Shown here: piece after piece, positions 1,439-37,851 of the stretch
Numbering within the stretch: the first letter of the stretch is position 1
Layout of the letters: the number at the start of each line of letters is the position of its first letter
DNA from: a virus
Virus record (IMG/VR): IMGVR_UViG_3300005511_000039
Location: 1-37,851 of that record
Length of the DNA stretch: 37,851 bases
Strand: one strand, 5' to 3'
The notes under the pieces: generated by a model
Told to the model about the DNA's origin: nothing
Database searches by the model: none
The model's input: only the letters and a program-made list of their open reading frames with translations
Position numbers and translations under genes: made by a program

Positions 1439-2152
1439 TTAGATTTGCTCACTCTGCTTGTGTATCACTTGGCCAACGACGATGCACGAGCCCTCGGTGC
1501 ACTCCTTACGCGGGTATCGACGCTGGTCCGGATTGTCCGATGACAGCCACCAGGCGCCACCGTCCCTGACCATTCGCTTGATGACTGCCTCGCCCTCGTA
1601 ATTGACGGCATAGACGCGTCCATCGCGGGGCTCGCGGTCTGCGGTGTTCACAACCACCATGTCATTCGGGTAGAGCGTTGGCTCCATGCTTTGCCCTGTG
1701 ATCTTCAGCGCCACCAGGTCATAGGGCTTGTAGCCCTTGGACTGGAGCCAGTCGGCACGGAAAAAGATGGGCGGCCCGCTTGTGTGATCGACCTCCAGCG
1801 CGAAGCCGCTCACGCCTGCTTGAAGCTTCAGCTCGACCCGGCGCACGCTCACGAGGTCGGGGTGTAGGTCTAGATCCACTTCCTGGGGCTCCGGGCGGCC
1901 AGTCATGTCCCCGGTGCCGTCGGCGAGCCACCCCGGATTGACCCCAAGAACAGACGCCATCTTCAGGACGTGCGCCGAGCCCTGGCCGGACTTCTCCGCC
2001 TGGGCGTAGGTTCCCTGCGAGATCCCCACGGCCTGCGCCACTTCCGTCTGGCTCATGCCGGACTTTTTGCGGGCGGCCAGCAGGCGCGCCCCGAACTCTG
2101 ATCGCTCTGAATCTCGCATAGCCGCGAGAGTAGGGTTTTCATCAATCGGCAT
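1439..2152 (-). CDS. CI-like repressor: HTH_3 DNA-binding domain plus S24 self-cleaving peptidase domain
   Basis: This is the lysogeny repressor. The N-terminal helix-turn-helix (from FGARLLAARKKSGMSQTEVA through GISQGTYAQAEKSG to NPGWLADG) binds the operators. The C-terminal half is an S24/LexA-type peptidase: the nucleophile is the Ser in GQSMEPT, the general-base Lys is in EAVIKRM, and LQAGVSGF in the linker provides an Ala-Gly bond as in lambda CI and LexA. Damage-activated RecA would therefore trigger self-cleavage and induction. The start is uncertain. The ATG at 2150-2152 (MPIDEN) lies inside the second operator and has no ribosome site. Alternatives are the ATG at 2117-2119 (MRDSERSEF) and an upstream ATG at 2219-2221. 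Length (about 226-237 aa) is normal for the family. Confidence 0.93.
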   Translation of the reverse strand: MPIDENPTLAAMRDSERSEFGARLLAARKKSGMSQTEVAQAVGISQGTYAQAEKSGQGSAHVLKMASVLGVNPGWLADGTGDMTGRPEPQEVDLDLHPDLVSVRRVELKLQAGVSGFALEVDHTSGPPIFFRADWLQSKGYKPYDLVALKITGQSMEPTLYPNDMVVVNTADREPRDGRVYAVNYEGEAVIKRMVRDGGAWWLSSDNPDQRRYPRKECTEGSCIVVGQVIHKQSEQI

Positions 2153-9104: not shown

Positions 9105-9181
9105 TGCGGTGTGGCTCAGCCAGGTAGAGCGTCAGGTTCGTAGCCTGGGAGTCGAGGGATCGAAGCCCTCTGCCGCATCCA
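9105..9181 (+). tRNA. Phage tRNA-Thr(CGT)
   Basis: A complete 77-nt cloverleaf with encoded CCA. The acceptor is TGCGGTG/TGCCGCA, the D arm GCTC/GAGC with a loop containing GG, the anticodon stem TCAGG/CCTGG with loop TTCGTAG (anticodon CGT at 9139-9141), and the T arm GAGGG/CCCTC. It would read the threonine codon ACG. Oddities are a T1-A72 first pair, two G-T pairs at the base of the acceptor, T as discriminator and A instead of T at position 54 of the T loop. It lies in the late transcript after tR'. Confidence 0.85.
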
Positions 9182-33582: not shown

Positions 33583-34506
33583 TCAAGGCCGAGGCACAGC
33601 CGTAGCGACACGCGCCGCGGCGTGCTCGGCAAGGTCTGCGCGGACGCGGCTCAGAAAAAACGAATAGCAGTAGTAGCGATACGAGTCCGTGTTGTAAATC
33701 GCTGCGTTCTTGTGCTTCTCAGCCAGTTGAAGCACACGCTCCTTGCCAATGAAATGGCCCTCGGCCCCGTGCGCTGCTACACGGCATTGACGGATGTTCG
33801 CATCTGACGTCGCTGTGTAGTGCTCATAGCCCTTCATCGTTGGATTGCAGCTGTCGCAGATGTCGGCCAAGCCCACGTTGTGGCCGATCTCATGGATCAG
33901 AACGCCGGCATGGAGATACCTCGGTGTTCCGAAAGAAAAGGCGGCGCCGATCTCCAGCATCTGCAGCCTCAAGCCCTTGGCCGCAGCGACGAAGAGCGGT
34001 GAATCGCTCTTCCTTACCAGCCAGCCCGGATGGTCCAGGTTTGCAATGATCTCGTTGATCTTGCCGCGCACGTAGTTTGCACGCAACGCGAAGCTCGACG
34101 TATCGCCCGGTTGTCCGATGGGCGCAGGGTTGGCCCGTCGCGTTGCGCTTCGTCCATGCCAGGCACGGGCGCCGAAAAAGTTCTCGAAATTCGTCCTGCC
34201 CGGCCATGTGTGGAGGCCGACGTGGCGACGCGCTTCGTAGAGCATGCCTTCCGCAAGGTAAAGGCATGCGCCTAGGGCATCGACTTCAGCCTGCGTGAAA
34301 CCGATGAACTTGAAGTTCTCGGCGTGGCCGTTACGCGGGCTCAGTACGACGGCGTCATAGATTGCTTGGCACTCCGCCGGTGTCCGCTCGAGGCTCATGT
34401 TGTAGGGCGCCACTGGACCGCTAACCCGGACCGCATGATTCACCTCATCCTTGGCGGCAGACGAGAGATGCGGTTGGTGGTGGACGTAAGCGCTCAAGGT
34501 AAGCAT
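33583..34506 (-). CDS. HEIGH metallopeptidase, M35/aspzincin-like
   Basis: A predicted zinc protease of 307 aa from the ATG at 34504-34506 (MLTLSAYVHHQP); an upstream in-frame ATG at 34582-34584 would add 26 residues but has no better ribosome site. The zinc motif HEIGH lies at about residues 205-209, in the context LHAGVLIHEIGHNVGLADI. A conserved C-terminal segment (AIYNTDSYRYYCYSFF) follows, as in M35/aspzincin proteins, and an Asp in HYTATSDANI could be the third ligand. The N-terminal part (FTQAEVDALGACLYLAEGML) looks like the family's propeptide/helical region. No signal peptide or membrane anchor is seen. Likely role: moron product acting on host or competitor proteins. Confidence 0.72.
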   Translation of the reverse strand: MLTLSAYVHHQPHLSSAAKDEVNHAVRVSGPVAPYNMSLERTPAECQAIYDAVVLSPRNGHAENFKFIGFTQAEVDALGACLYLAEGMLYEARRHVGLHTWPGRTNFENFFGARAWHGRSATRRANPAPIGQPGDTSSFALRANYVRGKINEIIANLDHPGWLVRKSDSPLFVAAAKGLRLQMLEIGAAFSFGTPRYLHAGVLIHEIGHNVGLADICDSCNPTMKGYEHYTATSDANIRQCRVAAHGAEGHFIGKERVLQLAEKHKNAAIYNTDSYRYYCYSFFLSRVRADLAEHAAARVATAVPRP

Positions 34507-34792
34507 GTGGTATCGCCGTGAGTGGGCCGCACGGGCGGCTCTTCTGCGGGGGTCGATGCTCTCACCCCCCATGGGCGCGTGCATCGGACCAAAGTCCTAT
34601 GCGGCACGCTCTCGGATCAGATCGTTCCGGCAACCACCGTTGGCTGAAGGAAAGCTTGCGCCTGCGCGCCGGTCGCCAGCCTCGAGCCGGAACTGCTGCC
34701 GCATCAAAACGGGATCACTGCGCGCTTACTCTGCAGGAGTTCGGCCGTGCGTTGCTGCGGCCAAAAAGAACACCCGCCAAATCGGCTGATGC
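34507..34792. other. Non-coding stretch before the metallopeptidase gene
   Basis: I see no convincing gene here. Frames on both strands are Arg/Ser/Ala-rich shadows. It may hold the promoter of the metallopeptidase and the 3' end of the 34793-35164 gene. An alternative N-terminus of the metallopeptidase (to 34584) would occupy part of it. Confidence 0.5.
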
Positions 34793-35295: not shown

Positions 35296-35523
35296 TCACT
35301 TGGCCGCAGGCATGCGCCGGATCTCGATCGGTCCGATGCCGTTGTAGACGATGTCGCCGGTCTTCATCGACGTGACCGTCCAGCGCTCGGCGCCGTGACC
35401 GGGCGTGATCTTGTAGTCGCCCGGCGCGAGCGGCAGGGTCTGCTCTTCGCGCGCTTTGTCGCTGTACCAGGCCGGCGTGTAGAGGATGGTGGTTTCGGTG
35501 GGGAAGATGTCAGCTTGGCTCAT
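35296..35523 (-). CDS. Hypothetical protein, 75 aa
   Basis: Starts MSQADIFPTETTILYTPAWY and ends IGPIEIRRMPAAK; the pattern of Tyr/Thr-rich strands suggests a small beta domain. The start at 35523 overlaps the stop of the upstream gene (ATGA); an upstream ATG at 35562 would lie inside that gene. It is last in a three-gene operon ended by the terminator at 35251. Not recognised. Confidence 0.6.
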   Translation of the reverse strand: MSQADIFPTETTILYTPAWYSDKAREEQTLPLAPGDYKITPGHGAERWTVTSMKTGDIVYNGIGPIEIRRMPAAK

Positions 35524-35951
35524 GGGTGGATTGTCGGCGTGTTGGGTTCGTCGTCGGGCCACGAGTCAGCGTCATCGTCGTTGGGGTGGAAGCCGGTGGA
35601 GCTTCGCGCGTTCATGCGCGCCAGCGCCGCCATGCCGCGTTCCAGCTCGAACATGCACCACCAGAGCTGCCGGCGGCCCTCGGGCTTGCTTTTCGGCCCG
35701 CGGTGGACGTACTCCATGCCCTTGACGAACTGTCCGCCCTCGCGGGCCTGCACGATGCTCGCGTTGCGCAGCGGGTTCAACAGGTCATGGTCTGGGCGCG
35801 CAGGATCGATGAGTCGCGCCTGCATGGTGCGGCCCCACATCTGCGGGTCGGCCGGCTCGAAGACGAACTCGCCGACGAAGCGCGGCGGGCCCATCACCTG
35901 GCTGCGCGTTCTCCAGGCTCCACGATTGCGCAACAAGACGATGGTCGCCAC
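35520..35951 (-). CDS. Hypothetical protein, 143 aa, GTG start
   Basis: A soluble, Arg-rich protein (ATIVLLRNRGAWRTRSQVMG, then PPRFVGEFVFEPADPQMWGR and LWWCMFELERGMAALARMNA) ending in a very acidic tail (DDDADSWPDDEP). GTG at 35949-35951 is the start, with GAGG upstream. It overlaps the next gene by ATGA and starts 17 nt after the 35969 gene ends. Family not recognised. Confidence 0.6.
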   Translation of the reverse strand: MATIVLLRNRGAWRTRSQVMGPPRFVGEFVFEPADPQMWGRTMQARLIDPARPDHDLLNPLRNASIVQAREGGQFVKGMEYVHRGPKSKPEGRRQLWWCMFELERGMAALARMNARSSTGFHPNDDDADSWPDDEPNTPTIHP

Positions 35952-35968
35952 GTTCCAACCTCAACCCC

Positions 35969-36454
35969 TCAGAACGGCACAGGGCCATAGTTCGCGCGGA
36001 TCAGATCGCCGGCGCTGCCGTCGCGCACGGTGCGCACCTGGTCTCCGACGGCGGCACACAGCTCGGCCACGCCGTGGGCGAAGGCGATTTGTTCCCGCGT
36101 CAGCTCGGCGCCGGGGGCTGCCAGGCCGACCTCGACCGCCAGCGCATTGAACTTCGCCAGCGCGCTGGTCAGCGTGTCGGCCGCACCGGTGAGGGAGTTG
36201 AAGTGCTGGCGCGAGACGTCCTCGGGCGGCCGGTGACCGACGACGTGGTACAGGGCGATGCCTTCGGTGAAGTCGGTTTCAGCATCCGTGCGCCCATTGG
36301 TGAGGCGGTTCTGCTCGGCCACGTAGCGACCAACCCAGTCGTTCCTGGCGATGATGCGCGCCAGATCGACGTCGGGCAGTTCGGTCGGTTTGCCCATGCC
36401 GCGCTGGTCTGGCGACGCGCTGGGGACGTGGATTTCGGAGGAAAGGGGCTGCAT
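35969..36454 (-). CDS. Hypothetical protein, 161 aa, first gene of an accessory operon
   Basis: A helical soluble protein: NDWVGRYVAEQNRLTNGRTD, FNSLTGAADTLTSALAKFNA, then EQIAFAHGVAELCAAVGDQV. CAGGAG lies 6 nt before the ATG at 36452-36454. An upstream in-frame ATG at 36502 would read through the LexA-like site and is rejected. The gene diverges from the SRAP gene across a shared region that carries a LexA-like box, so the same site may control both. Family not recognised. Confidence 0.65.
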   Translation of the reverse strand: MQPLSSEIHVPSASPDQRGMGKPTELPDVDLARIIARNDWVGRYVAEQNRLTNGRTDAETDFTEGIALYHVVGHRPPEDVSRQHFNSLTGAADTLTSALAKFNALAVEVGLAAPGAELTREQIAFAHGVAELCAAVGDQVRTVRDGSAGDLIRANYGPVPF

Positions 36455-36469
36455 GGTGGACTCCTGAAT

Positions 36470-36489
36470 TACTGGATGGGCATACAGTA
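36470..36489. promoter_or_regulatory. LexA-like SOS box between divergent genes
   Basis: TACTGGATGGGCATACAGTA keeps both TACTG/CAGTA outer arms of the SOS consensus and matches 15 of 20 positions of TACTG(TA)5CAGTA. A plus-strand -10 (TATTAT, 36488-36493) overlaps its right arm, so LexA binding would block the SRAP promoter. Confidence 0.7.
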
Positions 36490-36555
36490 TTATTCCGGCC
36501 ATGGAGCTTCGTCAACAGGTCTCGATGTCGCAGAATGTGAGCGGAAGGACAACCC

Positions 36556-37245
36556 ATGTGCAACCAGTACCGGACCCCCGAATCCGCCGAGGCAGAACGC
36601 TTCTGGCGCATCCATGAGGGCCGCGGCCGTAGGCCGCTGCTGCCGCCGATCAACGTCTTTCCGCGGTCGCAGGCGCCGTTCATTCGTCGCGCGCGCCACG
36701 AGACCGGCTACGAGCGCGAGCTGGTGGTCGGGCAGTGGGGCCTGATCCCCTGGTTTGCAAAGGAACCAAAGCTCAGCTACTCAACGAACAACGCGCGCGG
36801 CGAGGAGGTGGAGTCGAAGGCGAGCTACAAAGACCCATGGAGACGCGGGCAGCGCTGCATCATTCCGGCCATCAGCTTCATCGAGCCGAACTGGGAAAGC
36901 GGAAAAAACCAGTGGTGGCAGTTCCGCCGTGCCGACGGCGCTCCGTGGGGTTTGGCCGGGCTGTGGAACACCTGGACCGACAAGGCAACGGGCGAGGTGC
37001 ACGAGAGCTACACGATGATCACGCTGAACGCCAATGCTCACCCATTGATGAGCAGGATGCACAAGCCTTTGATTGACGGGGCGACACAAAGGCCCCTTCC
37101 GATTGAACTGCAGGACAAGCGCAGCGTGATCTCGATTGAACCGGGAGACGTCGACCTCTGGCTGGCCGGGACGATGGAGGAGGCGAGAGCGCTGCTGCAA
37201 CTGCCGGCGATCGAGCTGTTCGATGCGGGGCCAGTAGCGGCCTGA
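36556..37245 (+). CDS. SOS response-associated peptidase (SRAP, YedK/HMCES type)
   Basis: A 229-aa protein that forms a covalent thiazolidine link with abasic sites in single-stranded DNA, protecting them from breakage. All catalytic residues are visible: Cys2 after the initiator Met (MCNQYRTP), Asn79 in STNNARGE, Glu110 in AISFIEP and His162 in NANAHPLM. The remaining fold signature (WGLIPWFAKEP, then RCIIPAISF, GLAGLWNTW) is normal and the length typical. GGAAGG lies 8 nt before the ATG. A LexA-like box and -10 lie upstream. It may be a host gene next to the prophage or a phage moron; genome context cannot separate these here. Confidence 0.93.
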   Translation: MCNQYRTPESAEAERFWRIHEGRGRRPLLPPINVFPRSQAPFIRRARHETGYERELVVGQWGLIPWFAKEPKLSYSTNNARGEEVESKASYKDPWRRGQRCIIPAISFIEPNWESGKNQWWQFRRADGAPWGLAGLWNTWTDKATGEVHESYTMITLNANAHPLMSRMHKPLIDGATQRPLPIELQDKRSVISIEPGDVDLWLAGTMEEARALLQLPAIELFDAGPVAA

Positions 37246-37293
37246 CTGGTGCGCGCAGTTAGAAAAGCCGCATCGCGTTAGAAATCGAGGCTC

Positions 37294-37336
37294 AAAAACG
37301 AAAATGCGGACAACCACATAAGTGATTGTCCGCATT
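37294..37336 (-). terminator. Rho-independent terminator of tRNA-Pro
   Basis: On the minus strand AATGCGGACAA/TTGTCCGCATT (11-bp stem at 37326-37336 and 37303-37313, 12-nt loop) is followed by TTTTCGTTTTT. A second 9-bp repeat, TAGAAATCG/CGATTTCTA (37279-37287 and 37338-37346), encloses it. Confidence 0.8.
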
Positions 37337-37346
37337 ACGATTTCTA

Positions 37347-37423
<77 letters not shown>

Positions 37424-37473
37424 ACAAGCTTTCGATTCTAGCCCGGATATTTGGGGCTACCGAAAAATTCTCT

Positions 37474-37851
37474 TCAGCGCTTTTCGTACTGCGTCTTGCC
37501 GAAGAGCACTTCGCGCTCCTTGTCCCCAGTCAAGGGCTTGCGCAGATCGGCGAGCACCTTCACGCCGCGCTGCACTGCAGGGCGGGCAGCGATGCCATCG
37601 AACCAGGCCTTCAGGTGCGGGAAGTCGGTGAGCGTGATGCCCTGGTTTTCCCAACTGCGCAACCACGGGAAGACGGCGATATCGGCGATGGAATATGTCT
37701 TGCCTGCGATGAACTCGTTCTTCGAGAGCTGCTTGTCGATCACGCCGTACAGGCGCTTGGCTTCGTTGCTGTAGCGGTCGATGGCATAGGCGATCTTTTC
37801 CGGCGCGTACAGGCGGAAGTGGTGCGCCTGGCCGAGCATGGGGCCGACGCC
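37474..37851 (-). CDS. Glutathione S-transferase, nu-class (YfcG/YghU-like), truncated by the window edge
   Basis: The C-terminal 125 residues of a [23 protein letters not shown], then [37 protein letters not shown] and [20 protein letters not shown] match the helical domain of YfcG/YghU enzymes, which bind two glutathiones and reduce disulphides. The gene enters from beyond 37851, so the thioredoxin-fold N-terminus is missing here. It is a chromosomal gene and marks the host side of the boundary. Confidence 0.9.

What the first reader, a model, noticed from the sequence alone, without database searches (positions are those of the whole stretch)
36454..37245. SRAP gene with a LexA-like box next to a prophage end
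All SRAP catalytic residues are intact and TACTGGATGGGCATACAGTA overlaps its -10. It shares the control region with a divergent operon of unknown genes. If phage-borne, the prophage brings its own abasic-site protection, switched on by the same damage that induces it.
Basis: partly seen in the sequence, partly recalled or inferred. Interest (0 to 1): 0.6.

Follow-up and report, generated by a model that had tools for sequence, protein, structure and literature searches.

The report
Prophage abasic-site shield with SOS switch
A Variovorax prophage carries, about 100 bases from its attachment site, its own gene for a protein that caps damaged (base-less) DNA, and that gene and a set of uncharacterised neighbour genes share a binding site for the host's DNA-damage repressor LexA; phage-borne copies of this protein were known, but this conserved switch and the LexA-linked neighbour family appear not to have been described.

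Summary
36556-37245 (+) encodes a full SRAP protein (Pfam E 2.5e-32) with the YedK active-site residues. TACTGGATGGGCATACAGTA (36470-36489) is a host-type LexA operator: 22.3 bits on a matrix from host lexA/recA operators (those: 20.8-27.0; next best site in the window: 11.3). In 40 homologous loci, 35 boxes lie within 450 bp upstream of SRAP, 2 elsewhere in 416 kb. The gene is phage-borne: a Variovorax genome (G045) has a collinear prophage in the same tRNA-Pro, with a 45-nt repeat of the tRNA 3' part at its far end next to an integrase-like gene; V. paradoxus 110B shows the empty site.

Phage SRAP genes, and damage-related roles for them, were already proposed (2013, 2021). New here: the operator is conserved in Comamonadaceae and Burkholderia phages, and the neighbour family divB is itself LexA-box-linked, often away from SRAP; in at least 11 loci the operator's end is the apparent GTG start codon. 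Binding, induction and abasic-site chemistry remain untested.

The parts
36556..37245 (+). SRAP gene, 229 aa, predicted abasic-site cross-linking protein
   Evidence: PF02586 E 2.5e-32; active-site residues C2, N79, R81, E110, H169
36470..36489 (.). LexA operator TACTGGATGGGCATACAGTA shared by SRAP and the divergent operon
   Evidence: 22.3 bits on a matrix from host lexA/recA operators, next best in window 11.3; 35 such boxes upstream of SRAP in 40 loci
36486..36515 (-). sigma70-like promoter of the divergent operon, TTGACG-18-AATACT, overlapping the operator
   Evidence: consensus scan
35969..36454 (-). divA, 161 aa, helical, unknown family; conserved beside SRAP in several related prophages
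   Evidence: AF2 model pLDDT 76, pTM 0.44
35520..35951 (-). divB, 143 aa, small beta-rich protein of an uncharacterised LexA-box-linked family
   Evidence: alignment A1; AF2 pLDDT 81, pTM 0.75; no PDB or BFVD match; LexA boxes upstream of relatives
35296..35523 (-). divC, 75 aa, unknown family, conserved in the same divergent operon
37303..37336 (-). phage-supplied terminator behind tRNA-Pro
   Evidence: differs from the host terminator, which sits at the far end of the G045 prophage and in the empty site
37347..37391 (.). attR core, 45 nt of the tRNA-Pro 3' part
   Evidence: identical copy at the far end of the G045 prophage (length read from the alignment)
37347..37423 (-). tRNA-Pro (TGG), attachment target
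37474..37839 (-). host glutathione S-transferase gene fragment, flank outside the prophage
   Evidence: Pfam GST_C; same neighbour in Variovorax genomes
1439..2140 (-). phage CI-type repressor with S24 self-cleavage domain (start codon not settled)
   Evidence: Peptidase_S24 E 1.9e-20; A108-G109, S151, K188 numbered in the translated stretch 1442-2140

Best explanation
A temperate tailed prophage of Variovorax, integrated in the 3' end of tRNA-Pro(TGG), carries an SRAP gene about 100 bp inside its right attachment site. A LexA operator overlaps the divergent promoter region of SRAP and of a small operon (divA-divB-divC). In the quiet lysogen host LexA keeps both off; when DNA damage activates RecA, LexA cleavage turns them on, and the phage's own S24 repressor is expected to be cleaved by the same signal. 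SRAP then caps abasic sites in single-stranded DNA through its N-terminal Cys2, so the lysogen, or the replicating phage DNA, suffers fewer strand breaks and less error-prone bypass. Shown by sequence: gene, intact active site, phage location, operator of host quality and its conservation. Inferred: LexA binding, induction, abasic-site chemistry, who benefits. Unknown: what divA-C do.
For: SRAP domain and active site (chemistry of C2/N75/E105/H160 from PMC9436759). Operator at host strength; host lexA and recA genes carry the same kind of box. 35 boxes upstream of SRAP in 40 loci vs 2 elsewhere in 416,528 bp, at distances of about 40 to 290 bp and with diverged centres, so conservation follows the motif rather than the flanking DNA. 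Burkholderia phages KS9, BgManors32, Mana, AP3 and Magia have the box upstream of SRAP, in the gap to a divergent gene or touching its start. Phage location. A. baumannii prophage CP9 SRAP (A1S_2014) is DNA-damage inducible by experiment, through a different repressor (PMC7273328). 27 of 101 Variovorax genomes have no SRAP gene by Pfam search, so the prophage copy need not be redundant.
Against: No expression or binding data. No strong promoter was recognised for SRAP itself. Not every relative has the box: L026, L030, L037, L038 and the broken copy L041 lack it. Phages of hosts with other LexA motifs (SPBc2 of Bacillus, S1 and Smp131 of Stenotrophomonas) show no box of the motifs tried, so SOS control is not universal for phage SRAP. 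The integrase of this very prophage lies outside the window; the left end was read from G045. Many of the 40 loci are not independent (viral and genome records of the same prophage).
Confidence: 0.82

Rival explanations
1. SRAP is an ordinary chromosomal gene that happens to stand between tRNA-Pro and a prophage.
For: No integrase and no second attachment copy lie inside the window.
Against: Prophage-free Variovorax relatives have tRNA-Pro, terminator and often tRNA-Arg without SRAP; G045 has the repeat pair with SRAP inside. SRAP sits beside lysis genes or near the contig end in many viral contigs.
Confidence: 0.03
2. The box is an operator of the phage repressor (CI) rather than of host LexA, so SRAP is an early lytic gene.
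For: The phage repressor is S24-type and should respond to the same signal.
Against: The motif occurs once in the window and not beside the repressor gene; it matches host lexA and recA operators; it is conserved among phages of different genera.
Confidence: 0.07
3. The divergent operon is the point of the cassette: a LexA-controlled antirepressor or RecA modulator that triggers induction (as tum of phage 186 or dinI-gftA of Gifsy), with SRAP as passenger.
For: LexA-controlled antirepressor operons outside the immunity region are known (PMC3121763); divA-C are small, phage-borne and box-controlled.
Against: The phage repressor looks self-cleaving, so no antirepressor is needed; divB relatives occur with the box away from SRAP, some beside plain chromosomal genes; SRAP keeps the box with different divergent partners.
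Confidence: 0.15
4. SRAP is a damage sensor and protease switch for lysis, not a DNA shield (Aravind 2013 proposal).
For: Proposed for SPBc2 and Burkholderia prophage SRAPs (PMC3765255).
Against: The biochemistry of YedK (PMC9436759) is abasic-site cross-linking, and the residues for it are conserved here.
Confidence: 0.08

Closest known systems
SRAP / YedK-HMCES family (PF02586), abasic-site cross-linking proteins
   Same: Whole domain, Cys2 and the Asn/Glu/His active site
   Different: EPNW in place of the EW motif after the catalytic Glu, a longer loop after the catalytic His; a LexA box upstream, which E. coli yedK lacks at the score used
Phage-borne SRAP genes: SPBc2 yoqW, Burkholderia KS9 gp28, AP3, Mana, Magia, Marinobacter phage PS3, A. 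baumannii CP9 and phage ABMM1
   Same: SRAP in a temperate phage, often near the integrase or genome end, often with a divergent neighbour
   Different: Only 33-37% identity to the Burkholderia and Bordetella copies; SPBc2 and the Stenotrophomonas phages lack a box of the motifs tried; the Acinetobacter phages have SRAP with umuDC
LexA-controlled prophage genes outside the immunity region (186 tum, Gifsy antirepressor operons) and LexA-controlled phage GIL01
   Same: Phage genes placed under host LexA
   Different: Payload here is a DNA-lesion protein plus unknown genes; an antirepressor is not identified

Membership tests
SRAP (YedK/HMCES) | SRAP domain over the curated cut-off | tested here: met
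   112.6 bits vs 27.1
SRAP (YedK/HMCES) | Cys at position 2 and conserved Asn, Glu, His of the active site | tested here: met
   C2, N79, E110, H169; roles from PMC9436759
SRAP (YedK/HMCES) | Forms a thiazolidine cross-link with abasic sites in ssDNA | not testable with these tools
   needs purified protein
Host LexA regulon | Operator CTG-N10-CAG of host quality upstream of the gene | tested here: met
   22.3 bits vs 20.8-27.0 for host lexA/recA sites
Host LexA regulon | Operator conserved in relatives beyond chance | tested here: met
   35 boxes upstream of SRAP in 40 loci; 2 elsewhere in 416,528 bp
Host LexA regulon | LexA binding and RecA-dependent induction | not testable with these tools
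   needs gel shift and expression after mitomycin C
Prophage cargo at a tRNA attachment site | Direct repeat of the tRNA 3' end at both prophage ends, integrase inside, gene absent from the empty site | tested here: met
   shown on the collinear G045 prophage and the empty site of V. paradoxus 110B; the window's own left end is not held
LexA-controlled antirepressor operon (tum, gftA) | Divergent genes related to a known antirepressor or DinI | tested here: not met
   no Pfam, PHROG, NCBIfam or PADLOC match for divA-C; no fold match for divB

The most novel reading that the evidence does not exclude
divB founds an undescribed SOS-regulated protein family of Burkholderiales, spread on chromosomes and prophages, with a fold not matched in PDB or the viral model library, whose LexA operator in many loci contains the gene's own start codon (CAGTG read as GTG, implying a leaderless mRNA); prophages join it with SRAP across one operator into a damage-response cassette.
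Probability: 0.6. Interest if true: 0.65.

Novelty: new variant of a known kind. Interest (0 to 1): 0.5.

Why it matters
It gives a concrete test of an idea stated since 2013 without a regulatory basis: that temperate phages use SRAP in the damage response that also induces them. 27 of 101 Variovorax genomes have no SRAP gene of their own by Pfam search, so lysogeny may add an abasic-site shield to the cell. The search also exposed a gene family, divB, that carries LexA boxes in most members examined and is unnamed in the libraries searched; it is a candidate new piece of the SOS response.

Tried and rejected
No attachment repeat inside the window: the far end is not held, so G045 was used. 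Search with the divB alignment in viral contigs failed for lack of conserved stretches and with the single protein found no relative; no phage record matched divB by tblastn, although hmmsearch with A1 found Bordetella phage PHB09's gene next to SRAP (E 2e-10). Homology of divA with the divergent small protein c1 was suspected and not supported by hhalign (probability 0.2%). Bacillus LexA, Xanthomonas LexA and UmuDAb motifs were sought upstream of SPBc2, Stenotrophomonas and Acinetobacter SRAP genes without convincing hits. My first random-window control for the box (7%) was inflated because it sampled the real boxes; the count replaces it. Suspicion that the catalytic His was lost (an 'RMHKP' motif) was rejected by alignment with YedK. 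The idea that SRAP counters glycosylase defence has no support here: E. coli yedK deletion did not alter Brig1 immunity (PMC11078745).

Full report
OBSERVATION. The ORF 36556-37245 (+) encodes 229 aa with a full SRAP domain (phrog_1599). Aligned with E. coli YedK and eight phage SRAPs, Cys2, Asn79, Arg81, Glu110 and His169 fall on YedK Cys2, Asn75, Arg77, Glu105 and His160; the roles of Cys2, Asn75, Glu105 and His160 in abasic-site cross-linking are experimental (PMC9436759). The box TACTGGATGGGCATACAGTA lies at 36470-36489, 66 bp before the start codon, and is the only exact TACTG-N10-CAGTA in the window.

IS THE BOX A LexA SITE? Variovorax lexA genes have two adjacent CTG-N10-CAG boxes upstream, and recA genes have one or two. 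A matrix from ten such host sites (Variovorax and one Acidovorax genome) gives the SRAP box 22.3 bits, inside their range of 20.8-27.0; the next best site in 37.8 kb scores 11.3. Exact TACTG-N10-CAGTA sites are rare genome-wide: 5 in a 7.3-Mb genome (G045), one of them this operator; the reversed control pattern is about as frequent (6), so the short pattern alone proves little and the matrix and the conservation carry the argument. In 40 homologous loci, 35 boxes lie within 450 bp upstream of SRAP and 2 elsewhere in 416,528 bp. They lie about 40 to 290 bp from the start and differ in the ten central bases, as expected for a selected operator. Some of the 40 are the same prophage seen in two collections, so the independent number is lower. 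Five of five Burkholderia phages examined (KS9, BgManors32, Mana, AP3, Magia), with SRAP only about 33-36% identical, have the box upstream of SRAP, in the gap to a divergent gene or touching that gene's start. E. coli yedK, SPBc2 yoqW and the two Stenotrophomonas phages have none of the motifs sought.

IS THE GENE PHAGE-BORNE? A Variovorax genome, G045, is collinear with the window: CI region, tail genes and the SRAP end match, with 94% identity over 35315-37850. At the other end of that element, 69 kb away, stands a copy of the tRNA-Pro 3' part; reading the alignment gives a 45-nt identical core, window 37347-37391. Behind the far copy come the terminator and tRNA-Arg(TCT) that directly follow tRNA-Pro in V. 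paradoxus 110B. The terminator beside the window's tRNA-Pro differs and is therefore most likely phage-supplied. A tyrosine-recombinase-like protein of 354 aa (recognised by eye, no Pfam run) lies about 2.6 kb inside the far end. In 26 further Variovorax tRNA-Pro/GST loci none has SRAP beside the tRNA. Several other SRAP loci in genomes lie beside a tRNA or tmRNA whose 3' end faces SRAP, as expected if SRAP rides at prophage ends. The phage repressor has the S24 self-cleavage layout Ala-Gly, Ser, Lys, so the prophage is expected to be induced by the same RecA signal.

HOW IT LIKELY WORKS. Host LexA sits on one operator between SRAP and divA. The recognised minus-strand promoter overlaps it; for SRAP only a TATTAT hexamer touching the box can be pointed to. 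Damage frees both directions. SRAP then shields abasic sites in single-stranded DNA. Whether this serves the lysogen in mild damage or the phage during replication cannot be told. Experimental precedent for damage induction of a prophage SRAP exists in A. baumannii (A1S_2014, prophage CP9), where the regulators are UmuDAb and DdrR (PMC7273328). SRAP is not fixed in the host genus: 27 of 101 Variovorax genomes have none by Pfam search (genome completeness is not told).

THE DIVERGENT OPERON. divA, divB and divC have no family in Pfam, PHROGs, NCBIfam or PADLOC. They recur in mosaic combinations beside SRAP in related prophages. divB was modelled with fair confidence (pLDDT 81, pTM 0.75) and matches nothing in PDB or BFVD at E below 0.1. 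A search of 101 Variovorax genomes with the divB alignment found 56 matches in 34 genomes, 24 of them within 2.5 kb of a SRAP gene (the SRAP list was truncated, so 24 is a minimum). Of the 30 fetched, 27 have a LexA-type box upstream, mostly within 40 bp; the more distant ones are largely where divB is a later gene of the operon. In nine loci of other Burkholderiales genomes 6 have the box 16 to 22 bp upstream. In at least eleven loci (L139, L140, L144, L148, L149, L150, L152, L163, L164, L166, L167) the last three bases of the box are an in-frame GTG at the conserved N-terminus, leaving no room for a ribosome-binding site; a leaderless mRNA is the simplest reading, untested. These genes often face a second small unknown protein (c1, about 62-66 aa) across the same box. 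I take divB as a candidate new SOS-linked family. Its function is unknown; antirepressor, RecA modulator or partner of SRAP are open.

WHAT IS KNOWN. Aravind and colleagues (PMC3765255) named SRAP, noted it in temperate phages and proposed a damage-sensing role there. The Marinobacter phage PS3 paper (PMC8424206) proposed abasic-site protection of phage DNA. LexA-controlled phage and prophage genes are known (PMC3121763, PMC4551915). Thus the parts are known kinds; the conserved shared operator and the divB family were not found in the papers searched, which is a limited library.

Noticed in passing
L139, L140, L144, L148, L149, L150, L152, L163, L164, L166, L167: LexA-type operator ending in CAGTG whose GTG is the apparent in-frame start codon of divB-family genes; likely leaderless SOS transcripts.
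   Followed up: partly
L143, L148, L150, L152, L154, L157, L158, L160, L162, L164, L165: A 62-66 aa protein (W..CAHRLQ.QWRTVDP..LEE.A pattern), no significant Pfam match, stands divergent to divB across the same box.
   Followed up: partly
L005, L007, L022, L023, L029; L102 2333-3889: An ATP-dependent DNA ligase gene (PF01068, E 2.3e-28 for the L029 copy) stands near SRAP in Variovorax elements, as yoqV does beside yoqW in Bacillus phage SPBc2; the ligases are related.
   Followed up: partly
L107, L108: Acinetobacter phages ABMM1 and AbaSI_1 have SRAP followed by umuD and umuC, near the integrase.
   Followed up: no
L052 1503-2101: In the Delftia genome a different SRAP (about 41% identical) also ends about 260 bp from tRNA-Pro, suggesting another element in the same target.
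   Followed up: no
L058 1538-6797: Variovorax J22G73 has an element of about 5 kb in the same tRNA-Pro, with the tRNA end and host terminator repeated behind it.
   Followed up: partly
window 33583-34584: ORF on the minus strand with HEIGHNVG zinc-peptidase motif, weak match to Aspzincin_M35 below the curated cut-off (E 0.0022).
   Followed up: no
window 9105-9181: tRNA-Thr (CGT) inside the prophage shortly before the terminase genes.
   Followed up: no
L066 847-1193: Bordetella phage PHB09 has a LexA-type box after SRAP, in front of a divB-family gene.
   Followed up: partly
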